This document shows positions 24,094 to 36,322 of a stretch of DNA of 61,708 bases, piece after piece. The stretch lies in assembly GCF_019038465.1 (NCBI RefSeq), contig NZ_JAFKRH010000016.1, forward strand, positions 1 through 61,708, given 5' to 3'. Below the pieces are notes generated by a model. That model worked only from the letters and a program-made list of their open reading frames with translations. It was not told where the DNA came from and searched no databases. The stretch comes from Synechococcus sp. CCY 0621. GTDB taxonomy: Bacteria > Cyanobacteriota > Cyanobacteriia > PCC-6307 > Cyanobiaceae. Made by a program: the position numbers and the translations under genes. Numbering within the stretch: the stretch's first letter is position 1; each line of letters starts with the position of its first letter.

Positions 24094-25488
<1,395 letters not shown>

Positions 25489-26425: not shown

Positions 26426-27439
26426 ATGGCTTGCAACGCTCCCTTCGCCCTGGCGGCCGCCGCCGGCGGTGCTCCGCTGCTGCTGCGGCAGCTGTTCGAT
26501 GCCGAGACCAGCACCTTCACCTACCTGCTGGCGGATGTGGCCTCCCGGCAGGGGGTGCTGATCGATTCGGTGTACGAGCAGCATCCGCGTCCACGCCGAC
26601 CACGTGACCGGCAGCTGGCGACTGCACCGGGCCACCGGCTGCGCCATCGCCCAGGCCGCCGTCGCCGGGGCCGAGAACGTGACCCTGCCCCTGCGCCACG
26701 GTGATCGGGTGAGCTTCGGCGGCCGCTATCTGGAGGTGCGTGCCACCCCCGGCCACACCGACGGTTGCCTCAGCGTCGTGCTTGATGACCACAGCGTGGC
26801 CTTCACCGACGATGCCCTGCTGGTGCGGGGCTGCGGCCGCTGCGACTTTCAGCAGGGGGATGCCTCCACCCTCTACCACTCGATCACGGAGCAGCTCCTC
26901 TCCCTGCCCGACCATTGCCTGCTCTACCCGGCCGACGATTACAGCGGCCGGCTTGGGGGCGAGGCCGACGAGCGTGACTTCGTGGGCTACATGGAGAACC
27001 TGCACCTCCCCCACCCCAACCGGATCTCCGTGGCCCTGCCGGCCAACCTGCGCTCCGGCCGGCCCGCTGACGGCTGCCTGGAGGAGGCGGACGACTGGGC
27101 ACCGATCGAGCGCAGTTACGCCGGCCTGCCGGAACTGACGGCCGACTGGGTGGCCGACCACCGCGAGGCCCTGACGCTGGTGGACGTGCGCTCCGAAGCG
27201 GAGGTGCAGGGCCCGGACGGTCGCATCCCGGGCAGCCTGCTGATTCCCCTGCCCGAACTGCCGGCGCGTCCGGCGAGATCCCCACGGATCGGCCCACGGT
27301 GGTGCTTTGCCACTCCGGCAGCCGCTCCGCCCTGGCCACCCAACAGCTGCAGAAGAAAGGGCTCACACAGGTGGCCAACCTGCGCGGCGGCCTGCGGGCC
27401 TGGAAGGCGCAGGGGCTGCCGCTGGAGCATCCTGCTTGA
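26426..27439 (+). pseudogene. Decayed persulfide dioxygenase (MBL fold)-rhodanese fusion
   Basis: Homology runs through two frames. Frame A (26426 to about 26582) encodes RQLFDAETSTFTYLLAD...VLIDSVYEQ; after an internal deletion of roughly 25-30 codons the frame changes and VHADHVTGSWRLHRATG continues to about 27265; a further shift leads to the rhodanese active site VVLCHSGSRSALAT and the end at 27439. Further damage: the first His of the HxHxDH motif is Arg (IRVHADH), FTGDALL is FTDDALL, PAHDY is PADDY, and about a dozen residues are missing before RLGGE. These changes would abolish iron binding, so this is a true pseudogene rather than a sequencing error. Confidence 0.88.
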
Positions 27440-27654
27440 ATTACAGCATGGCGCTCTGTTGTAGCCGTGAACACAAATGGTTCTCGGACCCGATAACAAC
27501 GGCTGGGATTGGAGTTCCTGATTAGAGTGCCGTTGCGGGCCAACGGATGAAGAGACTGTCTGCTGTGAGCTCAGTTGTCTTATCTGGAATGGACCTGCCG
27601 GCTGGGGGTGGTTCGTGGAACCGTCCAATAAAGAGCCAGACCTTCTAGCCACCC
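27440..27654. other. Junction region left of the cassette array
   Basis: A 215-bp non-coding stretch where base composition changes from GC-rich to A+T-richer. It holds a small palindrome, CCGTTG (27530-27535) with CAACGG (27541-27546), and a GGTTC/GAACC mini-hairpin near 27610-27622. No convincing attI, attC or promoter was found; it probably contains the left boundary of the insertion. Confidence 0.4.
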
Positions 27655-28197
27655 ATGACAAAAGCATCAGAAGCCTTCAATCGTTCCATCAGCGACGCAG
27701 AAGAGCTCTTAATGCGCTTTGAGGCTGAGAGGGCAACTACAAATCATCCGCAGAACGGTGAGGTTCTCAAGCGTGCCGGACTCGTCATGGCTTTGGCGGC
27801 TTGGGAGACGTACGTCAAAGACCGTGTAAGAGACGAAATCTCAGTATGGTTGCAATCGGTGGAAGGCAGTCCGATTGGCAAGTTTGTCCGAAGGCGCCTC
27901 GAAGAAGATCTAAAGCGCTTCTTTAATCCGAATTCTGAAAGGACTCGGCGACTATTCTTGGACTATTTTGAGGTAGACATTACAAAGGAGTGGTCTTGGG
28001 ACAATTACGATACGGCTACGGCAAAGAAGACGCTCGATGTCCTTATAGCTAAAAGAGGAGATGCGGCCCATCAAGCAAATACTTCCGAACACCCTAGTGC
28101 CCAACCACACAAGGTTAAAAGAGAAGAATTGGAAAAGGGCATCCGGTTTCTAAAAGGCCTAGTTAATGCCTCCGAAAGAGCGAGAGTAGCAAAATGA
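27655..28197 (+). CDS. HEPN-domain protein, putative RNase (RiboL-PSP-HEPN / MAE_28990-like)
   Basis: A 180-residue helical protein. The N-terminal helices contain LVMALAAWETYVKDRV, typical of HEPN-like nucleases of the RiboL-PSP/MAE_28990 type, and the C-terminal part has Arg134-x4-His139 (AKRGDAAHQ), the Rx4-6H signature of metal-independent HEPN RNases. Such proteins are toxins or abortive-infection effectors. No nucleotidyltransferase antitoxin is adjacent. It is the first cassette cargo; its stop is 1 bp before an attC-like site. Confidence 0.7.
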   Translation: MTKASEAFNRSISDAEELLMRFEAERATTNHPQNGEVLKRAGLVMALAAWETYVKDRVRDEISVWLQSVEGSPIGKFVRRRLEEDLKRFFNPNSERTRRLFLDYFEVDITKEWSWDNYDTATAKKTLDVLIAKRGDAAHQANTSEHPSAQPHKVKREELEKGIRFLKGLVNASERARVAK

Positions 28198-28198
28198 G

Positions 28199-28288
28199 AT
28201 CAAACAAGCCCCTCGAGTGGACAGTCCACCACCAGCGCCCTGTCTTCGTTCCACACTCACTGCCTGCCACTCAGGGGCAGTGTTCGGC
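28199..28288 (+). repeat. attC-like site 1
   Basis: R'' box ATCAAAC (28199-28205) and R' box GTTCGGC (28282-28288). L'' is GCCCCT + CG + AGTGG (28208-28220) and L' is CCACT + C + AGGGGC (28267-28278), pairing 6 + 5 bp with one extra base on the L'' side, the extrahelical base expected of attC. Length 90 bp, directly after the HEPN stop. Confidence 0.65.
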
Positions 28289-28302
28289 GGCTTTTATCGG
28301 CT

Positions 28303-29196
28303 TTAACTCAGACTATTGCTGCTCAACCAAGAATGAACAACATCGTCGATCGTGATTTTTCCTTGAATCCTGTTTGTCCCATTTTCCTCAAAGACTAGCG
28401 TTCCAGCGTTGAAAGTACAGATCATCTCACTATACGAACGGACAGTGGCAGGACTGCTCCCCATTTGCGCCAGCACCGAAGACCATTCACGCTCAGGCAG
28501 GATGATCGCTTGAACGTCCCGCTCCAAGGCTTTGCTAAAGCTGGCGGCAACATCATTTGGGCTTAAAGGGTGTAAGCCGTGAAGTTCCCTGACCTGCGTG
28601 TTTTGCCACGTTTGTATCAGCATATCCGCGCGCGTCTGCCCGATGTCGATCGCTGAAATCATCGGCACGGCCCGATCTAGCGGAGCATAGAAAGATGGCA
28701 ACCTTCCCGTTTGTTTTTTAATCGGCAAAAGCGATCGCCAGTTTTCCATAAACCCCGCCGCCCGAACAAAACCAATCGCGACCTTAGACGGCAAGCTTTT
28801 GAGCTTCTCTTCCATCCTGTAGGCGGTCAGAATGTTGCCAGTTCCTCGCGGGAGATGGCCTCCAATGGAAGACAGGACAACAATTCTCGGCAAGCGTGTT
28901 CGTCGTGCTGCTTCAACGATCGCTGAAATCACCTGCTCAGTCCATGCGAATAAATCATCTGAGGCGTAGTCAGGCGGATTCAGAACATACGCCCCTAACA
29001 CCCCTTCAAAAGCACGACCCAAGGCATCCACATCGGCAAAATCTTCGACAATTGCAACCTCAGCCCTTTGTGCTTTCCAAGCGGCACCTTTGCTTTCATT
29101 CCGCACCGCTACCCGCACTGTTGCCTGTCCCATCAGGGCATTTACCGTCACTGCACCGGTCTGTCCTGTCGCTCCTAACACAACATAGCTCGCCAT
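28303..29196 (-). CDS. NmrA-like NAD(P)-binding protein
   Basis: A 297-residue Rossmann protein of the atypical SDR/NmrA group: MASYVVLGATGQTGAVTVNALM has the GxxGxxG nucleotide motif, followed by VVLSSIGGHLPRGTGNI and FVRAAGFMENW. Members are redox sensors or quinone/isoflavone-type reductases. ATG 29196 has AAAGGAAA upstream; the frame is open to 29241 without homology. The sequence looks closer to filamentous cyanobacteria than to the host backbone. It is in line with the SDR at 29263-29997 and the divergent AraC regulator. Confidence 0.78.
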   Translation of the reverse strand: MASYVVLGATGQTGAVTVNALMGQATVRVAVRNESKGAAWKAQRAEVAIVEDFADVDALGRAFEGVLGAYVLNPPDYASDDLFAWTEQVISAIVEAARRTRLPRIVVLSSIGGHLPRGTGNILTAYRMEEKLKSLPSKVAIGFVRAAGFMENWRSLLPIKKQTGRLPSFYAPLDRAVPMISAIDIGQTRADMLIQTWQNTQVRELHGLHPLSPNDVAASFSKALERDVQAIILPEREWSSVLAQMGSSPATVRSYSEMICTFNAGTLVFEENGTNRIQGKITIDDVVHSWLSSNSLS

Positions 29197-29262
29197 TATT
29201 TTGATTTTCCTTTTGTCTGTAAGCTGAACTGTGCCTTTCAATGAGGATGAATGGGCAATGCT

Positions 29263-29997
29263 TTAGAATGCGCTGGCGGTCGGGCGAACAATAATTTCAT
29301 TGACATCCACATCCGCTGGTTGAGCAATCGCATATAAGACAGCTATGCCGATCGCATCTGATGTGAGTGCCGTCTTGCGAAGTTCTTGTAAAAACCCCTT
29401 GCTGGCATTGTCCGTGATATCAGAGCCAAGTTCAGTTTCGACTACGCCAGGGGAGATAAGCGTGACACGGATATTTTTTGACTCCTGACGCAGTCCATCG
29501 GAGATTGCCCAAACTGCGTATTTTGTGGCGCAATAAACCGCAGCAGTAGGTCCGACCCAATGAGCGGCGATCGACGCAGTATTGATAAACTGTCCACCAC
29601 CTTGCGCTTCCATGATCGGCAGTCCCGCTGCAATGCCATTTAATACGCCGTGAATGTTGACATTGATCATGGTGTCCCATTCCTCAACTTTCAGCGCATC
29701 TAGCCGTGATAGCGGCATCACGCCTGCGTTGTTAAAAATCACATCAACACGGCCAAACCTATCTTTGGCAAAGTGAATGAACTCTTTCATATCCTCACGA
29801 CTGGTGACATCCACCGCTCTAAATCCTGCTGTGTTGCCCTGATCACGAATTTCCTTGACAATCTTACCGAGCTTCTCTGCCCGTCGCGCTCCTAGAACAA
29901 CGTTTGCGCCATTTTGAGCCAGCAATCGAGCAGTTGCTTCACCAATTCCACTACTGGCTCCGGTAATGACGACAACTTTCTTTTCAACGTTCAACAT
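29263..29997 (-). CDS. Short-chain dehydrogenase/reductase
   Basis: A 244-residue classical SDR: TGASSGIGEATARLLA for cofactor binding, NNAGVMPLSRL, INTASIAAHW and catalytic Tyr-x3-Lys in AVYCATKYAVWA, then SPGVVETELGSD. This resembles the NADP-dependent oxidoreductases found with AraC regulators in many bacteria. ATG 29997 with AGGAAAAG upstream is preferred over GTG 30003. Probably cotranscribed with the NmrA gene (66 bp gap) and controlled by the divergent regulator. Confidence 0.85.
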   Translation of the reverse strand: MLNVEKKVVVITGASSGIGEATARLLAQNGANVVLGARRAEKLGKIVKEIRDQGNTAGFRAVDVTSREDMKEFIHFAKDRFGRVDVIFNNAGVMPLSRLDALKVEEWDTMINVNIHGVLNGIAAGLPIMEAQGGGQFINTASIAAHWVGPTAAVYCATKYAVWAISDGLRQESKNIRVTLISPGVVETELGSDITDNASKGFLQELRKTALTSDAIGIAVLYAIAQPADVDVNEIIVRPTASAF

Positions 29998-30163
29998 AGT
30001 CACTTTTCCTGAATGATGAGTTTGTATAGATTAACAGTAAAGGCAAAGGCAAGAAAGCTAAATACATAGACCTCCCGGATTCTTGCCTAATCCTCCAAGC
30101 TGGGATTTTGTTGGTCGTCTATAATGCTGAGTGGAAGGTGATTTAATGAGTCGGTAAAATCCC

Positions 30164-31096
30164 ATGACACCTCAACTCATTCGCTCAGTTAGCCATCAAG
30201 CTGAGATTACAAAGCAGTGCCAGGAATTGGCAGACCTGATCACTTGTCATACCGATGGCAAGGGGAATGGGTTTCATCAAACCGCGATCGATCAATTGGA
30301 ATTTCAGCGAGAATCTTCAGTTTCCACTGCACTACGCGGTGTTTGTGACCCGATCTTTGCAATTCTGGTTCAAGGTAAAAAAGAACTGTTTCTGAATGAG
30401 GAAATCTATCGGTATGGTGCGGCGCAATACCTGGTTGTATCAGTTGATCTGCCGCTAACCGCATTTGTTGTAGAAGCGTCTGCTGACAAGCCTTATCTGG
30501 GATTTAAGCTGACGTTAAATCCCTATCAACTCTGTGATCTGATAATTCAAGCCAGTCCGATTCAGCGTCAGCAAGAAAATGCTGTGAGAGGCTTATTTGT
30601 CAGCACTATTGATATGCCGTTGCTCGATTGTGCTCTCAGGCTGACGAAACTTTTGGATGCACCACAGGATATTCCCGTCCTGGCACCGCTAATCATTCGC
30701 GAACTCTATTACCGCCTTTTAATGAGTGACCAAGGCGCAGCAGTTCGCCAGATTGCCACATCGGGTAGCAATATGCAGCGGATTGCTGAGGTGATAAAAC
30801 AGCTCAAGGCTGATTTCACGCAGCCATTGCGGATCGAGGATTTAGCAGGACAAGTCGGGATGTCTGCTTCCTCGTTTCATCATCACTTTAAAGCCGTGAC
30901 ATCCATGAGTCCGCTACAATATCAAAAACAATTGAGACTCCTCGAGGCGCGCCGTCTGATGCTTGCTGAAAACTCTAATGCGTCCAATGCTGCCTATCAG
31001 GTAGGGTATGAGAGTCCGTCGCAATTCAGTCGCGAGTATGCTCGGATGTTCGGTGCGCCGCCGATTCAAGATATTGAACATCTACGAACAGCCTGA
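30164..31096 (+). CDS. AraC-family transcriptional regulator
   Basis: A 310-residue regulator with an N-terminal AraC_N sensor region (VCDPIFAILVQGKKELFLNEEIYRYG cut into VCDPIFAILVQGKKELF and YRYGAAQYLVVSVDLP) and a C-terminal double helix-turn-helix (MSASSFHHHFKAVTSMSPLQYQKQLR; AAYQVGYESPSQFSREYARMFG). It diverges from the SDR/NmrA pair across a 166-bp gap and likely regulates it. Low GC and HIP1-type sites nearby suggest origin from another cyanobacterium. Confidence 0.88.
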   Translation: MTPQLIRSVSHQAEITKQCQELADLITCHTDGKGNGFHQTAIDQLEFQRESSVSTALRGVCDPIFAILVQGKKELFLNEEIYRYGAAQYLVVSVDLPLTAFVVEASADKPYLGFKLTLNPYQLCDLIIQASPIQRQQENAVRGLFVSTIDMPLLDCALRLTKLLDAPQDIPVLAPLIIRELYYRLLMSDQGAAVRQIATSGSNMQRIAEVIKQLKADFTQPLRIEDLAGQVGMSASSFHHHFKAVTSMSPLQYQKQLRLLEARRLMLAENSNASNAAYQVGYESPSQFSREYARMFGAPPIQDIEHLRTA

Positions 31097-31161
31097 ACAT
31101 AACCTGTATCCTTATGGGCTTTGCTGAATGTAGATATTATTCGCGGATGAGCATTCTTGCA

Positions 31162-31189
31162 GTAGGGGCGGCTCGCGAACCGCCCCTAC
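31162..31189. repeat. Short palindromic repeat of the GTAGGGGCGG...CCGCCCCTAC type
   Basis: A 10-bp perfect inverted repeat, GTAGGGGCGG (31162-31171) and CCGCCCCTAC (31180-31189), around an 8-nt loop containing TCGCGA. I know very similar dispersed repeats from filamentous and colonial cyanobacteria; they are not expected in picocyanobacteria. It supports a foreign cyanobacterial source for this segment. Confidence 0.7.
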
Positions 31190-31257
31190 GAAATTCATAT
31201 GTCAGATCAGCAACGCCTGCTTGGGCTTTAGATTGAAGTTGGAGGAACGCGATCGCC

Positions 31258-31344
31258 GCCGAACAATTCAAATGTAGCGGACGGTTAAAAGGTACAAGTT
31301 TTAGGTTGAAGTTCGTCTGTCGCCGCTGATTTGAGGCGTTGGTC
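31258..31344 (+). repeat. attC-like site 2
   Basis: R'' GCCGAAC (31258-31264), spacer AAT, L'' TCAAAT + GT + AGCGG (31268-31280), L' CCGCT + G + ATTTGA (31323-31334), spacer GGC, R' GTTGGTC (31338-31344). The L''/L' stem is 6 + 5 bp with one extra base on the L'' side, the canonical attC layout. Length 87 bp. Confidence 0.7.
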
Positions 31345-31356
31345 CTCTCAACGCCC

Positions 31357-31470
31357 ATGCCAAGCTTCTATGACCATATCGCACCTGTTTATCACCATGT
31401 CAATCCACGCTGGGCTGAAAGCATCCGCCGCCAAGGCGAGCAACTCTCTGCTCTCATCGCAGCGGATTGG
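31357..31470 (+). pseudogene. N-terminal remnant of a SAM-dependent methyltransferase
   Basis: ATG 31357 begins MPSFYDHIAPVYHHVNPRW and runs to about ALIAADW (38 residues), which matches the start of class I methyltransferases that open with SFYDxLAPFYH. The SAM-binding motif and all later blocks are absent; the frame then runs through unrelated sequence into the next gene. It is the first item after attC-like site 2 and is evidently a truncated cassette gene. Confidence 0.65.
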
Positions 31471-31552
31471 GTCGTACGAGCAACGCCTTTTCAGCCTGCG
31501 GCGCTGAGAACACACAACACGAGCCACCCTCTCGACACCACTTCTTCCCACC

Positions 31553-31945
31553 ATGAAACTCGGCTACACCATCGTCTACGTCCCCCGCGTTGCGGACTCG
31601 CTTCAGTTCTACGAGCGGGCCTTCGACCTCGAGCGGAGGTTCTTTCACGACTCAGGTGACTACGGCGAGCTCAAGACAGGAGAAACCACCCTCGCCTTCG
31701 CCTCTCATGCACTGGGTGCAATGAACTTTCCAGTCGGTCACGTGCATGCAAGCGAGTCCCAGCAACCCCTGGGCATGGAGATCGCTCTCGTTACCGAAGA
31801 CGTGCAGGAGGCCCACCGATCCGCCATCAAGCATGGAGCCAAGGAGCTGGCTGCACCCGTGGCCAAGCCGTGGGGCCAGACAGTCTCCTATGTCCGTGCG
31901 CCAGACGGTACGCTCATTGAACTATGCACTCCTGTTGCCGGGTGA
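31553..31945 (+). CDS. VOC-superfamily (glyoxalase / bleomycin-resistance-like) protein
   Basis: A 130-residue protein with two beta-alpha-beta-beta-beta modules: YTIVYVPRVADSLQFYERAFDLE and GMEIALVTEDVQEAHRSAIKHGA, ending PWGQTVSYVRAPDGTLIELCTP, the usual VOC ending with a metal-ligand Glu. Single-domain VOC proteins are very common integron cassette cargo and function as dimers. The stop is 8 bp before attC-like site 3. Substrate unknown. Confidence 0.85.
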   Translation: MKLGYTIVYVPRVADSLQFYERAFDLERRFFHDSGDYGELKTGETTLAFASHALGAMNFPVGHVHASESQQPLGMEIALVTEDVQEAHRSAIKHGAKELAAPVAKPWGQTVSYVRAPDGTLIELCTPVAG

Positions 31946-31953
31946 ACGGTGCG

Positions 31954-32016
31954 GCCTAATCCCTCGGTCAAGCTGAGCACCAACGGCAGGCTGCCTGCTT
32001 ACCTCGAACGTTAGCC
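31954..32016 (+). repeat. attC-like site 3 (most canonical short site)
   Basis: R'' GCCTAAT (31954-31960), L'' GGTcAAGC (31966-31973) and L' GCTTACC (31997-32003) pair as 3 + 4 bp with the single C left unpaired, exactly the extrahelical base of classical 60-bp attC sites; R' is GTTAGCC (32010-32016). Total 63 bp. Confidence 0.75.
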
Positions 32017-32032
32017 ATTCGCGAAGGACATC

Positions 32033-32718
32033 ATGTTCACGCTTGAAAAGGTTGTCCCTTGGGGTCGTTCATTCGAGGAATACACTGGCATGTTCTTACT
32101 GGCCGAGGCCGATATGGCAGGCCGAATCCTTGGCTGTGGGGATGGACCTGCAGGCTTCAATGCAGAAGCAACAAGAAGAGGAGCCAAGGTTGTTTCATGC
32201 GATCCACTCTATGAGTTCAGCAATGCCGATATTGAAGCTCGTATTGCCGCTACCTATGAGCAAGTGATTGATCAGACGAGGCAAAACCAGGAGGAGTTCG
32301 TTTGGAAGCCATCACATCGGACGATGAGCTTGGCAAGGTGCGCATGGCCGCCATGAATGCGTTCTTGGCTGACTATCCTGCCGGCCTCATGGAGGGTAGG
32401 TACATGAATGCGGCTTTACCTTTTCTGCCCTTCCCTACCGGCGATTTCGACCTGGCCCTCTGCTCGCATCTTCTCTTCTTGTATAGCCAACAGCTGGACG
32501 AAGAGTTTCATCATGCCTCACTGCTGGAGCTATGCCGAGTTGCCAAAGAAGTCAGGGTGTTTCCACCTCTTGCCTTGGGCGGTGCGCGTTCGCCCTATCT
32601 GGAAGGGAGTGTCGAGATGCTGCGTACAGCTGGGCATAATGTATCGATTCAGCGGGTGAACTACGAATTCCAGAGAGGCGCATGTGAAATGCTGCGGATT
32701 CAACGCGCTGATAGCTAG
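32033..32718 (+). pseudogene. SAM-dependent methyltransferase broken by a -1 frameshift
   Basis: ATG 32033 starts MFTLEKVVPWGRSFEEYTGMF, followed by the SAM motif ILGCGDGPAGFNAEATRRGAKVVSCDP (as GRILGCGDGPAGF, VVSCDPLYEF). The frame is lost at about 32303, where FVW continues as EAITSDDELGKVRMAAMNAFLADYP only if one G is restored in the TTTGG-AAG run; the second part then runs to RVNYEFQRGACEMLRIQ and the stop at 32718. Both halves fit one cassette-type methyltransferase of about 228 residues. A sequencing error in a G run cannot be excluded. Confidence 0.75.
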
Positions 32719-32799
32719 CATCAAGATTCAACGCAAGGCTTCAACGGTGCTTGATCCTTGGCTAAGGCCACTGTCAGCCGATGATCTTGAGCGTTAGTC
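32713..32799 (+). repeat. attC-like site 4
   Basis: L'' TCAAGAT (32721-32727) pairs perfectly with L' ATCTTGA (32784-32790) and continues as CAACG/CGATG after an unpaired T. R' is GTTAGTC (32793-32799); the matching R'' is the degenerate AGCTAGC (32713-32719), which contains the stop codon of the broken methyltransferase gene. About 87 bp. Confidence 0.6.
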
Positions 32800-32934
32800 G
32801 CCTTTATCTTTTCAGATCTGAGTATGTTCGGAATCAATTCAACGCACTTCACTTTATGCCCCTCAGTTCTCGTCATTCCGTAGGTTTCATCGCTGGCTGC
32901 TGGCTCTGCCTTGATTCCTGATGATGGAGGCTCA

Positions 32935-33879
32935 ATGACAAACCCCTCAACGCCTGCCGGAGTTCACCTGATTACATCCACAGGCACTCTCCATGGCACA
33001 CAGATCATTCCAACCTCTCATCTGCCAACACCAGTCGTGCTGATCATCGCGGGTTCAGGTCCGACTGATCGCAATGGGAACGGGCCTCTAGCTGGCGAGA
33101 ATAACAGCCTCAAGCAACTAGCTGAAGGATTAGCCGATCACGGCATTGCCTCGATACGCTATGACAAGCGTGGTATTGGAGAAAGCTCATCCGCAGGGCC
33201 TGAAGAAGTTGATTTGCGTTTTGATACCTATGCTGAAGATGCAGCACTCTGGATTCAACAACTCCAGGTAGATCCTCGTTTCTCAGGCGTCACCGTAATT
33301 GGTCACAGTGAAGGTTCTCTGATTGGAATGCTGGCGACCTACAAAGCGGAAGCAGATGCGTTTGTCTCCATCGCCGGCCCCGCCCAATCGGCATCAGCAA
33401 TTCTACGAAAACAACTACAATCGAGATTGCCAGAGTCATTATGGCAACAGAGCGAGCAGATTCTTGTTTCCCTAGAGCAAGGTAACCCTGTGATCTCCGC
33501 TCCACCGGAATTACACATGCTCTTCAGAGCGAGCGTCCAGCCTTATCTCATGTCTTGGTTCCGTTACACCCCTGCCCAGGAGATTATGCACCTCACGATT
33601 CCTGCTCTCATTGTTCAAGGAACCACAGATATCCAAGTGCCTGTCAGTGAGGCAAAAGCCCTGAAAACGGCCAAGCCTGATGCGGAGCTTAGAATGATTG
33701 AAGGGATGAATCACGTCTTAAAGGCTGTTTCATTAGACCCTAAACAGCAAAATGCTTCCTACTCCGACCCGACGCTGCCAGTTGTGCCTGAACTCGTTGA
33801 AGGGATCAGTCAATTCATTCATGCCCGAGAGAGGCTTAGGGCGTCTCATCAGTTGCTGCACCGAAACGAGCCACATTGA
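32935..33879 (+). CDS. Alpha/beta hydrolase (serine aminopeptidase S33-like)
   Basis: A 314-residue hydrolase. HGxx-like oxyanion strand LIIAGSGPTDRNGN, the YDKRGIGESS block, nucleophile elbow GHSEG (Ser125), acid in QGTTDIQVP and His in EGMNHVLKAV. The family acts on esters or peptides. ATG 32935 has GGAGG upstream and gives the family N-terminus; the frame extends to TTG 32911. Low GC, cassette cargo between attC-like sites 4 and 5. Confidence 0.85.
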   Translation: MTNPSTPAGVHLITSTGTLHGTQIIPTSHLPTPVVLIIAGSGPTDRNGNGPLAGENNSLKQLAEGLADHGIASIRYDKRGIGESSSAGPEEVDLRFDTYAEDAALWIQQLQVDPRFSGVTVIGHSEGSLIGMLATYKAEADAFVSIAGPAQSASAILRKQLQSRLPESLWQQSEQILVSLEQGNPVISAPPELHMLFRASVQPYLMSWFRYTPAQEIMHLTIPALIVQGTTDIQVPVSEAKALKTAKPDAELRMIEGMNHVLKAVSLDPKQQNASYSDPTLPVVPELVEGISQFIHARERLRASHQLLHRNEPH

Positions 33880-33912
33880 CTTCTTGAGTAGAAAAGTCTA
33901 TTTGCGTTCGGT
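33860..33912 (+). repeat. Weak attC-like site 5
   Basis: ACCGAAAC (33860-33867) can pair with GTTCGGT (33906-33912), and GACTT (33878-33882) with AAGTC (33894-33898). At 53 bp it is shorter than normal attC sites and it contains the hydrolase stop codon, so it may be degenerate or a coincidence. Confidence 0.3.
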
Positions 33913-33948
33913 GAGCTTGATCGTGGTCCCACCTGACTTAGATTTTTG

Positions 33949-34464
33949 ATGCGAATCTCTTACGAACAAGCCATTGAGAGGCTTGGCCTGCTTGCCAACC
34001 TGTGTTCATTCGACCCAATAGTGATCGGAACGCTGCCGCTTGGAATTGATGTTTCCAGCAGCGATATCGACATTGCCTGCTCTTGTGATGATCTTGACCT
34101 GTTTGCAGACTTCACAACGCGTCAATACGAATCGCAAGATGGCTTTCAAGTTCGACATGGCATCTTTCAAGACCACGCATCTATTGTTGTTCAGTTCAAA
34201 GCGCTCGGATGGGATGTTGATATCTTCTGCCAACCCATTCCGACAGCCAAACAGTGGGGCGTACGGCATTTTCGAATTGAACAGCGGTTACTCGCTTTGT
34301 CTCCTAGCCTAAAGTCAACTGTGACGGAATTGAAACGTTCGGGCTTGAAAACCGAACCTGCGTTTGCCAAAGCTCTTGGATTGTCCGGTGAGCCTTATGG
34401 GGCAATTCTAGGACTTGAACAATTCGACGACCGTGAGTTGTTGGCACTATCTGGGATTCAATAA
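33949..34464 (+). CDS. DUF4269-type nucleotidyltransferase-like protein
   Basis: A 171-residue protein. GTLPLGIDVSSSDIDIACSC resembles the G-S-x-D-x-D nucleotidyltransferase site as it appears in DUF4269 proteins (G-T-x-P-x-G-I-D ... SDIDI), followed by QVRHGIFQDHASIVVQF and VDIFCQPIP with a third acidic residue. Function unknown; related folds modify small molecules such as aminoglycosides or tRNA. ATG 33949 is used; TTG 33946 precedes it directly. The stop lies 7 bp before attC-like site 6. Confidence 0.78.
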   Translation: MRISYEQAIERLGLLANLCSFDPIVIGTLPLGIDVSSSDIDIACSCDDLDLFADFTTRQYESQDGFQVRHGIFQDHASIVVQFKALGWDVDIFCQPIPTAKQWGVRHFRIEQRLLALSPSLKSTVTELKRSGLKTEPAFAKALGLSGEPYGAILGLEQFDDRELLALSGIQ

Positions 34465-34471
34465 AACCGAA

Positions 34472-34565
34472 GCCTAACGATGCGATGGGGATGGTGCGAC
34501 GGAGTCACGTCGTTTCGACGTCTTGGAAGCCTCGAGTTGCCGCCTGCCCATCGCCAATGTTAGGC
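34472..34565 (+). repeat. attC-like site 6 (perfect R''/R' pair)
   Basis: R'' GCCTAAC (34472-34478) and R' GTTAGGC (34559-34565) are exact complements and exact matches to RYYYAAC and GTTRRRY. L'' GCGATGGG (34482-34489) pairs perfectly with L' CCCATCGC (34547-34554). An internal ACGTCG/CGACGT hairpin lies near 34507-34521. Length 94 bp. This is the clearest integron attC in the window. Confidence 0.85.
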
Positions 34566-34584
34566 GCATGCAACAGGAGGCACC

Positions 34585-35244
34585 ATGAGCTCAGAAAAAA
34601 TTGAATGGGGCAAGGAGATCGCCCAAGCCGGAAGTGATATTGCCGAGCTAACCAAAGAGGCTGGTCTTCCTGGGGTCGAGTTAATTGCTAGGTTCGCTGA
34701 GCTCTTTTATGACAAGCACCTCCAGCGTCGCTTCGTAAGGTTTGTGTCCGAGGCAGAAATAGATCAGGAACTCATCGACAAGATCATAAGCGATGAGACT
34801 TACTCAAACTGCCTTTATGCTGTACTTGAGACAGTGCGCCAGACCCACTCGAGAATCGGATTAGGCGCGCTCGCTCTCATCTGTCGTGACCGCTGGGATG
34901 ACGAGAGTTATCTAATTGGTGCCATGTACTCCTTTTCTCAAATTAGCGACAAGACCATTGAGGCATTTCTTGTGCTGTACGAGAGTATTCCCAAAGGGCA
35001 GGACTATTTAAATCTTGAAGTACATAAAAACAGTGATTGCCACTTTCGCGATCTCTGCAATGTGGCTGTCGAGCTAGTGCGACGTAACTTCTTTGTCATG
35101 ACCTCTGGAATCAAGGTCTACGCTAATTATCCTGTTCAAGGCATGAAGTGTGACCACTCGGAGTCCTACTGTCAGTACTGTCAAAGGGCGAAGGCTCGTG
35201 TCTACCATCAAGACACAGGTGACGGGAGCGGAGGCTACCGCTAG
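34585..35244 (+). CDS. Hypothetical cassette protein
   Basis: A 219-residue protein with an ideal ribosome-binding site (AGGAGG 6 nt before ATG 34585). The N-terminal half is helical (EIAQAGSDIAELTKEAG; FAELFYDKHLQRRFVRFVSEAEID) and a Cys/His cluster lies near the C-terminus (CDHSESYCQYCQRA), possibly a zinc site. No family recognised. It is the last cargo gene of the array. Confidence 0.6.
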   Translation: MSSEKIEWGKEIAQAGSDIAELTKEAGLPGVELIARFAELFYDKHLQRRFVRFVSEAEIDQELIDKIISDETYSNCLYAVLETVRQTHSRIGLGALALICRDRWDDESYLIGAMYSFSQISDKTIEAFLVLYESIPKGQDYLNLEVHKNSDCHFRDLCNVAVELVRRNFFVMTSGIKVYANYPVQGMKCDHSESYCQYCQRAKARVYHQDTGDGSGGYR

Positions 35245-35286
35245 TGGTAAAGCCTCTGCCTGCTTCTGATCTGGAGTGTTAGCTCC
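35225..35286 (+). repeat. Weak attC-like site 7 at the right end of the array
   Basis: GGAGC (35225-35229) can pair with GCTCC (35282-35286) around an R'-like GTTAGCT (35278-35284), and a separate hairpin GAGGCT/AGCCTC lies at about 35231-35256. The expected L''/L' arms are not clear, so the site may be truncated. The GTTAGCT supplies the stop codon of the minus-strand HNH gene. Confidence 0.4.
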
Positions 35287-36322
35287 GGTGATACCTCACC
35301 TTCTGCCCCTCCCGCTCACTCTGGAACCGCTGCAGCCGGTGGGCCAGCGCCCGTAGCCGTTTCATGTCACGGGAGTTCACCGGATCGAACAGATCCCCCC
35401 GCGCGGTTTCGATGAACACCAGCACATCCTTGGGGCTGCAGGCGCCGCTCTTCCAGCCGTGGAACTCCCGATGTAGATCGGGCACCAACACCAGGATGTT
35501 TTCCGGCAGGTCGGCCAGGTCAGGGCGGCTTCGGCGGTCGAACAGATGGTGGCCGTCAAGGTCGATCTTCTTGTGCACCGCTGCCTTCTTGCCGGTGATC
35601 TCGCAGCGGTGGCCGGCGGCCGACTTGGCGCGCTTGATGGCCCGGTCCACCCCTTCGGTGAGGTAGCGGATTTCGGAGTTGAAGCAGGCTTCCACGACAT
35701 CGCCCACGGCTTCGATCCAGGCCTGGCGCGTCTTGGTGATCCGGCTGTTCACCCGCATATCGCGGGCCACGCGGGCGATGCCCCGCTGGCTGATCAGCAG
35801 CTGCCGCTCCTCGCTCTCCAGGAAGTCCTTGTTGAGCTCCAGGGCTTCCTCCCCCTCCTCCGTGCCGGCGGTGCGCAGCCGGTTCCAGGAGTTGTTCAGC
35901 CCCAGGTAGTTGGTCTGCAGGATCCCCACGGTGGTTTTGCGGCTCACGAAGGCCAGATCGCCACGGATCTCCAGGGTGCCGCCGGCTTCGATGAACTCCT
36001 GGGTGATCCGGCGTGACACCAGCAGCTGCTTGCGCTTCTGCTTCACGTTGAACAGTCGCTCGCGGATCTTGCCAAGCAAGCCCGTTTTCTCGGTGGCTTC
36101 GATGTAGCGGGCTAGGGCCTCCACGCCCTCCTCGCTGAAGCGCCGGGGGCGCCGCCCACTGGCGCCGGCCACCGCTGGGCCGGCGTACTCGAAATGCTCG
36201 CCCTCCACCAGCTCCCATTCGTCGTCGGCCTTGGCATCGAACGCGTCAACGATGTTGTAGAGGCTGTCGATCCGTTTTCCGAGAATCCGGGCCGTCTCTT
36301 TGGCCGTCAAAAGGTCGCGCAT
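35279..36322 (-). CDS. HNH-type putative endonuclease
   Basis: A 347-residue protein. The C-terminal region CEITGKKAAVHKKIDLDGHHL ... ENILVLVPDLHREFHGW (35450-35600) fits a His-Asn-His nuclease: GHH, Asn in ENI, and H-REFH. The N-terminal part (LLTAKETARILGKRIDSLYNIVD) looks like a small DNA-binding helix-turn-helix. It starts 4 bp after the J-domain gene, so the two form an operon. Its stop TAA lies inside the R'-like box of the cassette array, so the last residues may have been altered by the insertion. Confidence 0.6.
   Translation of the reverse strand: MRDLLTAKETARILGKRIDSLYNIVDAFDAKADDEWELVEGEHFEYAGPAVAGASGRRPRRFSEEGVEALARYIEATEKTGLLGKIRERLFNVKQKRKQLLVSRRITQEFIEAGGTLEIRGDLAFVSRKTTVGILQTNYLGLNNSWNRLRTAGTEEGEEALELNKDFLESEERQLLISQRGIARVARDMRVNSRITKTRQAWIEAVGDVVEACFNSEIRYLTEGVDRAIKRAKSAAGHRCEITGKKAAVHKKIDLDGHHLFDRRSRPDLADLPENILVLVPDLHREFHGWKSGACSPKDVLVFIETARGDLFDPVNSRDMKRLRALAHRLQRFQSEREGQKVRYHRS

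What the first reader, a model, noticed from the sequence alone, without database searches (positions are those of the whole stretch)
27530..35286. Integron-like cassette array without integrase in a picocyanobacterial chromosome
Five well-formed and two weak attC-like sites, all in one orientation, alternate with mostly single-gene, low-GC units. The L''/L' arms pair with one unpaired extra base, and the R' boxes read GTTAGGC, GTTAGCC, GTTAGTC, GTTGGTC and GTTCGGC. Gene stops lie 1-8 bp before, or inside, the sites. Integron cassettes are well known from Proteobacteria; I do not know of a described array in Cyanobium-type genomes. It could be an active acquisition platform or a CALIN.
Basis: partly seen in the sequence, partly recalled or inferred. 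Interest (0 to 1): 0.93.

Follow-up and report, generated by a model that had tools for sequence, protein, structure and literature searches.

The report
Integrase-less docking station for gene cassettes
This piece of a freshwater picocyanobacterium's chromosome is a row of seven gene cassettes behind a docking site that has no integrase gene beside it, one of several such stations in the genome, which were likely filled from a distance by a single integrase whose gene is now broken.

Summary
In detail: an attC model trained on relatives' arrays finds the five good sites (E 2e-9 to 5e-4) and the two weak ones, all on +, and nothing convincing elsewhere on the contig. No intI lies here, nor beside this attI in eight other genomes with the orthologous site; seven of them carry other sequence behind it, one the same array. 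Of 123 attI sites detected in the genus, 101 have no listed intI match within 1 kb, and stations recur at the same place in 3-10 species. In two relatives one (near-)identical cassette sits at intI-linked and intI-less attI, cut at G|TT. I conclude that the window is one station of a multi-station integron, likely loaded in trans. It is probably dead: its attI core reads GCC instead of GTT, and the genome's only intI match outside a transposon is interrupted. In relatives a 257-bp attI unit itself sits in arrays like a cassette. Cyanobacterial integrons are in print; my searches showed no report of such stations.

The parts
27477..27635 (+). attI site without intI: distal repeat from 27477, core GGTTCGTGGAACCGTCCAATAAAGAG ending at 27635; crossover point 27635|27636, where the TT of G|TT now reads CC
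   Evidence: R3 attI model 50.6 bits; matches sequence behind intI of relatives; distal repeat at the usual distance; content of orthologs diverges here
27636..28282 (+). cassette 1: HEPN protein ORF 27655-28197 (Pfam RiboL-PSP-HEPN)
28199..28288 (+). attC 1, R' GTTCGGC
   Evidence: 42.8 bits, E 2.3e-9
28283..31338 (.). unit 2: NmrA-like ORF (28303-29241, -), short-chain dehydrogenase ORF (29263-30003, -), AraC regulator ORF (30164-31096, +)
31258..31344 (+). attC 2, R' GTTGGTC
   Evidence: 31.8 bits, E 2.5e-6
31339..32010 (+). cassette 3: glyoxalase-family ORF 31553-31945; a 70% relative lies on contig C15, 2.8 kb beyond the last attC match of the array behind the broken intI
31954..32016 (+). 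weak attC 3, R' GTTAGCC
   Evidence: 14.5 bits, E 0.16; 16.5 bits, E 0.049
32011..32793 (+). cassette 4: methyltransferase-like gene (my reading; no Pfam match), open frame split into 32033-32356 and 32302-32718
32713..32799 (+). attC 4, R' GTTAGTC
   Evidence: 32.3 bits, E 1.9e-6
32794..33929 (+). cassette 5: alpha/beta hydrolase ORF 32911-33879
   Evidence: relative at another station of G004
33841..33929 (+). weak, decayed attC 5
   Evidence: 17.1 bits, E 0.03; 13.8 bits, E 0.27; homology between two stations of G004 ends here
33930..34559 (+). cassette 6: DUF4269 ORF 33946-34464
34472..34565 (+). attC 6, R'' GCCTAAC / R' GTTAGGC
   Evidence: 23.7 bits, E 4.5e-4
34560..35278 (+). cassette 7: ORF 34585-35244 (219 aa, no family match)
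35200..35284 (+). attC 7, R' GTTAGCT; right end of the array
   Evidence: 39.4 bits, E 2e-8; conserved flank of orthologs starts here
26604..27464 (+). left flank: metallo-beta-lactamase-fold gene (rhodanese-type by my reading), conserved at the orthologous station
35279..36322 (-). right flank: conserved 347-aa protein, no family match

Best explanation
Bases 27477-35284 are an integron cassette array headed by an attI site with no integrase gene beside it, one of several intI-less attI stations in this genome that were likely loaded in trans by an IntI encoded elsewhere. Shown: attI and attC anatomy; no intI match at this site here or in the eight other genomes whose site clusters with it; other sequence between the same flanks in most relatives; (near-)identical cassettes at intI-linked and intI-less attI in two relatives, with G|TT ends; the only intI match of this genome outside an IS91-type element is interrupted. 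Inferred: IntI made in one place binds attI at all stations and joins circular cassettes to them by attI x attC recombination at G|TT; this station worked while its core read GTT and is now probably inactive, because the core reads GCC and the genome's intI is broken.
For: attI: window 27586-27635 scores 50.6 bits with an attI model built without own-genome rows (close orthologs of this site are in the model), and the stretch matches sequence 3' of intact intI in relatives (56 bp at 80%, E 2e-8, in L047; 28 bp at 93% in L037). Where a modelled attI lies behind an uninterrupted intI it is 130-138 bp away in 10 of 11 cases. Orphan status: 101 of 123 listed attI (E <= 1e-3) have no listed intI match within 1 kb 5'. 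I looked at 75 of these 101. Of 62, 54 are informative and 50 have attC 3' on the same strand; of 8 rhodanese stations of relatives 5 have attC, 2 none, 1 is too short; of 5 own sites 4 have attC, 1 none. Together that is 59 of 66 informative. Orphan attI keep the distal repeat: 58 of 65 score >= 15 of 24 against 2 of 65 shuffled, 53 of the 58 at 158-162 bp from the crossover. Orthologous stations: among 71 sites, clusters of 10, 9 (this one), 6, 4 and 3 sites in as many genomes. Trans loading: in G015 a 134-bp cassette is identical at the intI-linked and the orphan attI, both ends at G|TT. In G002 one 2469-bp cassette stands first at the intI-linked attI and three orphan attI, 99.96-100% identical. 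Own C35 against G002 is an empty/occupied pair at attI. In the family sample attI and intI co-occur: 37 both, 7 intI only, 8 attI only, 149 neither.
Against: No recombination was tested. Only 11 of 31 uninterrupted intI have a modelled attI within 1 kb 3'; five others show a different core (G006, G008, G017, G021, G029), so several IntI/attI types exist and which serves which is open; the ratio of orphan to linked attI depends on the model. The array here equals that of G004 (96.9% over 7.65 kb), so nothing shows that this copy was loaded in trans; it may have been exchanged whole. G002, G003 and G010 share the distal 0.8 kb of this station, so part of its content is inherited. The rhodanese stations of G002 and G010 gave no attC at E <= 1. 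Two own arrays (C46, C10) have no attI match and one own attI (C52) has no attC. Four of the 54 informative sites have no attC. The G002 element encodes its own tyrosine recombinase, so IntI need not have moved it. intI remnants weaker than the listed ones, or beyond contig ends, would be missed; the own genome is a draft of 101 contigs.
Confidence: 0.8

Rival explanations
1. Every station was once a complete integron; intI was later deleted from most, and the arrays left behind are fossils that no enzyme has touched since.
For: 11 of 123 attI lie behind an intI fragment; one G002 station is preceded by a visibly decayed intI 3' end (read by eye); the own intI is interrupted; conserved positions of CALINs in Xanthomonas are read there as ancestral activity (passage in PMC12444791).
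Against: At the orthologous rhodanese site no clustered genome has a listed intI match, yet the sequence behind attI differs between species; the shared cassettes at linked and orphan attI of G015 and G002 are recent. As an origin of the stations it remains possible; it fails as an account of their later filling.
Confidence: 0.13
2. The cassettes were inserted by an integrase at ordinary attG-like chromosomal sites, and the attI resemblance is superficial.
For: attG insertion is described for other integrases (passages in PMC12444791 and PMC12901181). In the window the middle repeat of intI-linked attI is diverged.
Against: The site has the core and the distal repeat at the same distance as in intI-linked attI, and attI matches track intI across the family.
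Confidence: 0.03
3. The stations and arrays were copied around the chromosome by the IS91-type element or by homologous recombination, not by IntI.
For: An IS91-family transposase with a tyrosine recombinase sits at four attI of G002 and one of the own genome; whole-array exchange with G004 is possible.
Against: The element is bounded by G|TT and its joined ends fold as attC; the G015 cassette is 134 bp and holds no recombinase; 5' flanks of the station clusters do not match each other.
Confidence: 0.04
4. Ordinary chromosomal genes with chance hairpins.
For: Two of seven sites are weak; a simple box scan is not above shuffles.
Against: Five sites at E <= 4.5e-4 on one strand, none comparable in the other 54 kb; content breaks at the same two points as in relatives.
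Confidence: 0.005

Closest known systems
CALIN (cluster of attC lacking integron integrase)
   Same: Several attC on one strand, no intI; mobilisation in trans by an IntI is proposed in print (passages in PMC12444791, PMC9668308, PMC12690207)
   Different: Headed by a recognisable attI; CALINs are defined by attC alone
Position-conserved CALINs of Xanthomonas (PMC12444791, passage)
   Same: Relatively conserved positions across species
   Different: The passages I saw name no attI at them and read them as traces of ancestral activity
Sedentary chromosomal integron with inverted integrase orientation (Treponema, Synechococcus sp. group; PMC3607928, passages)
   Same: IntI family; in relatives the array lies 3' of intI in intI's own orientation
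   Different: Many attI per genome, most without intI, at recurring chromosomal places
delta-attI-type gene cassettes of mobile integrons (PMC12901181, passages)
   Same: An attI-derived site travels inside a cassette
   Different: There attI remnants of varying length in resistance cassettes; here a 257-bp unit with the whole attI (relatives only)
attG insertions (passages in PMC12444791, PMC12901181)
   Same: Cassettes away from intI
   Different: The target here is an attI, not a generic genomic site

Membership tests
integron (complete) | attC sites with paired R and L boxes | tested here: met
   two of seven are weak
integron (complete) | attI at the head of the array | tested here: met
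   core TT mutated to CC
integron (complete) | intI gene beside attI | tested here: not met
   no match on contig C16; the only intI match outside an IS91-type element is on C15, interrupted
CALIN | two or more attC less than 4 kb apart without intI | tested here: met
   largest gap, between attC 1 and 2, is 3.0 kb
integron integrase (TIGR02249) in relatives | match above the curated cut-off | tested here: met
   28 of 42 genus genomes; the own genome not
integron integrase | IntI-specific insert (alpha-I2 patch) | not tested
   only the family model was used
attI x attC recombination by IntI in trans | activity on an attI away from intI | not testable with these tools
   sequence traces only
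attG-inserted cassettes | insertion site is not an attI | tested here: not met

The most novel reading that the evidence does not exclude
In these picocyanobacteria the integron has come apart into one enzyme and many docking sites: attI is a mobile, conserved element of its own, partly spread as a 257-bp attI cassette, so that a single IntI serves an archipelago of cassette stations across the chromosome, and the window is a decommissioned island of it.
Probability: 0.55. Interest if true: 0.92.

Novelty: new variant of a known kind. Interest (0 to 1): 0.85.

Why it matters
Integrons are described as one platform: intI, attI and array side by side. Here, among the attI sites that my model detects, those without intI are several times more common than linked ones, recur at the same chromosomal places in up to ten species, and carry mostly different cassettes. 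That makes it testable whether one integrase can run many insertion points, which would let cassettes be placed next to different chromosomal genes. It also gives CALINs a concrete source, and a sequence signature (attI) by which to look for the same arrangement in other phyla.

Tried and rejected
A simple R/L-box scan was no better than shuffles in its loose form and found one window site and 13 sites in relatives in its strict form; it served to seed the model. Two of those 13 seeds were left out before modelling: L034:1745 (short) and L042:15703 (did not align). An alignment of attI regions with some loci in the wrong orientation was discarded and redone, where several rows (G005, G011, G014, G032) still did not show the core, for some because the locus is cut at a contig end; part of that output was cut off. 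My first idea that the IS91-type element targets attI as an insertion sequence was dropped when its ends proved to be G|TT with an attC fold; the fifth G002 copy (C1:2162496) was not examined. My first reading that the array has been frozen since the split from G004 was dropped: cassette ORFs have dS 0-0.11 against 0.35 for the flank gene, so exchange is possible. PADLOC found no defence protein among five cassette ORFs. One protein search was used; no structure prediction was made. The paper searches for intI-less or multiple attI gave nothing that describes this arrangement in listings or in the passages I opened; most subscription papers are not in the library, so this is weak evidence of absence.
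Full report
WHAT WAS CHECKED. The finding claims five good and two weak attC-like sites on one strand at 27530-35286. A covariance model from 11 sites of relatives' arrays (R1) finds all seven; a model from 54 sites agrees, with lower scores for 34472 and 33841. Outside the array the best match of 54 kb has 11.0 bits (E 1.5). A simple box scan alone would not have shown the array. The seven units hold a HEPN protein, a three-gene block (NmrA-like, short-chain dehydrogenase, AraC regulator), a glyoxalase-family protein, a split methyltransferase-like gene (my reading), an alpha/beta hydrolase, DUF4269 and an unknown 219-aa protein. The AraC protein is 94% identical to one of Cyanobium gracile UHCC 0139; the next named hits are Leptolyngbya (84%), Stenomitos (82%) and Nostoc, so that block was probably acquired from filamentous cyanobacteria (inference).

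THE LEFT END IS AN attI. The right-flank gene (35279-36322) and the left-flank gene (26604-27464) were located in 42 genus genomes and the shared site was fetched. Homology to the window runs to about 27622-27635 on the left and restarts at 35275-35288 on the right. The left break is a conserved core, in relatives ...AAGAACAAG|TTAG or similar, in the window ...AATAAAGAG|CCAGAC and in G004 ...AATAAAGAG|CTAGAC. A like core with upstream repeats lies behind intact intI genes of relatives. The window keeps the distal repeat and the core; a middle copy that intI-linked attI have just before the core is diverged here.

NO INTEGRASE HERE. The own genome's matches to the integron integrase model are two pieces of one interrupted gene at C15:133591-134327 and the recombinase of an IS91-type element on C21. 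None is on C16. By my selection, 31 uninterrupted nearly full-length intI lie in 24 of 42 genomes (counted); 28 of 42 genomes are over the model's cut-off.

THE SAME SITE IN RELATIVES. By 5' flank the station clusters with those of G001, G002, G003, G004, G006, G010, G015 and G032; none has a listed intI match within 1 kb 5' of attI. G004 has the same array (96.9% over 7.65 kb). G002, G003 and G010 share only the distal 0.8 kb with each other; G006, G015 and G032 (the last two cut at 4 kb) gave no match of 60 bp or more to the others; of G001 only the first bases are known before the contig ends. I recall, unverified, that the length of the single contig of G002 is that of Cyanobium gracile PCC 6307.

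MANY STATIONS. An attI sequence model from 32 sites of relatives finds 123 listed sites at E <= 1e-3 in 36 of 42 genomes; its training sites are among them by construction. Eleven lie behind uninterrupted intI, eleven behind fragments, 101 behind neither (contig ends and unlisted weak intI matches are not excluded). Conversely only 11 of the 31 uninterrupted intI have a modelled attI within 1 kb; five others show another core type. I looked at 75 of the 101 orphan sites; 59 of 66 informative ones have attC 3' on the same strand. In the own genome attI heads attC on C15, C16, C21, C26, C31 and C35; C52 has attI without attC, C46 and C10 attC without attI. Among 71 sites, stations recur at orthologous places in 10, 9, 6, 4 and 3 genomes, one per genome; 26 sites are singletons. 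In 201 genomes of the family, attI and intI co-occur in 37, against 7 with intI only, 8 with attI only (the own genome among them) and 149 with neither (Fisher p 1.7e-25).

TRACES OF TRANS LOADING. (1) G015: a 134-bp unit is identical at the intI-linked attI (C2:191.9 kb) and the orphan attI (C2:40.9 kb), bounded by G|TT on both sides, while the attI sequences themselves differ. (2) G002: a 2469-bp element stands first at four attI, one linked and three orphan; its joined ends fold as attC with R'' GTTCAAC and R' GTTGAAC. The related own copy encodes an IS91-family transposase and a tyrosine recombinase, so it may be moved by its own recombinase. (3) Own C35 and G002 are an empty/occupied pair at attI: 90.5% over 1226 bp, three small gaps, with the element left out. 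(4) G004 carries relatives of two of its rhodanese-station cassettes at its dcd station in swapped order.

MOBILE attI UNIT (relatives only). In G029, G009, G014, G037, G038 and G041 a unit of about 257 bp that ends in attI sits in arrays or behind attI. Of 18 copies inspected, 17 are preceded by G and all begin with TT; seven are directly preceded by an attC match, two by an attI-like core. Ten of 42 genomes have a match at E <= 1e-10; the own genome has none, and the window station does not start with the unit.

HOW IT MOST LIKELY WORKS. IntI made at one locus binds attI repeats at every station and joins circular cassettes there at G|TT (inferred). The window station was filled while its core read GTT and while an intI worked in this lineage or its source; now the core reads GCC and intI is interrupted, so it is predicted to be inert unless an outside IntI excises cassettes at the attC sites. 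Against G004 most cassette ORFs have dN below dS; the NmrA-like ORF and the first methyltransferase piece do not, and the glyoxalase frame is broken in G004. Several are probably still used (inference). The array is 95-98% identical to G004, the first kb of the right flank about 90%, farther flanks 92-97%, and dS is 0-0.11 in cassette ORFs against 0.35 in the flank gene, so the array may have been exchanged between species.

WHAT IS KNOWN. Passages seen, no whole papers: PMC2426708 (intI in Cyanobacteria), PMC8352920 (a cyanobacterial attC model), PMC3607928 (Synechococcus IntI grouped with Treponema; array in intI's orientation), PMC9668308, PMC12444791 and PMC12690207 (CALINs; mobilisation by IntI in trans; position-conserved CALINs in Xanthomonas), PMC12901181 (delta-attI cassettes, attG). 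PMC12444791 and PMC11551772 define the integron with intI and attI as one platform. I found no description of recurring intI-less attI stations or of a full mobile attI unit.

Noticed in passing
L230:6312-6568 (-) and L266-L291 (G029, G009, G014, G037, G038, G041): A 257-bp unit ending in attI sits in cassette arrays, in seven copies exactly after an attC match, like a cassette whose recombination site is attI.
   Followed up: partly
L038, L198, L199, L203 (G002) and L197 (own C21): An IS91-type element with transposase and tyrosine recombinase is built as an integron cassette with its own attC and stands first at attI sites.
   Followed up: partly
window:27200-35300 against L127: The array is 95-98% identical to that of G004, the first kb of the right flank about 90%, farther flanks 92-97%: possible exchange of a whole array between species.
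   Followed up: partly
window:30164-31096: The AraC regulator of unit 2 is closest to Leptolyngbya, Stenomitos and Nostoc proteins among named hits outside Cyanobium.
   Followed up: partly
window:31160-31195: GTAGGGGCGG...CCGCCCCTAC inverted repeat inside unit 2, like small dispersed repeats of filamentous cyanobacteria (recalled, not searched).
   Followed up: no
window:23939-24055: TPP riboswitch ahead of the 462-aa ORF at 24100-25488, which reads like thiC (gene name by eye).
   Followed up: no
G072, G077, G099, G121, G146, G149, G173 and the own genome: attI sites but no intI match at E <= 1e-50 in 8 of the 45 attI-bearing genomes of the family sample; G099 has 8 attI.
   Followed up: no
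L218:8814-8846, L220:8802-8839: Synechococcus sp. RedBA-s and Cyanobium sp. Morenito 9A2 have a further attI with attC on the other side of the right-flank gene.
   Followed up: no
attI behind intI of G006, G008, G017, G021, G029: A second attI core type (..GTCCGCCCATACAGCG|TTAG..) that the model mostly misses; IntI and attI may form matching types.
   Followed up: no
G000:C46:60463-70811: An array of six attC without a recognisable attI in the own genome.
   Followed up: partly
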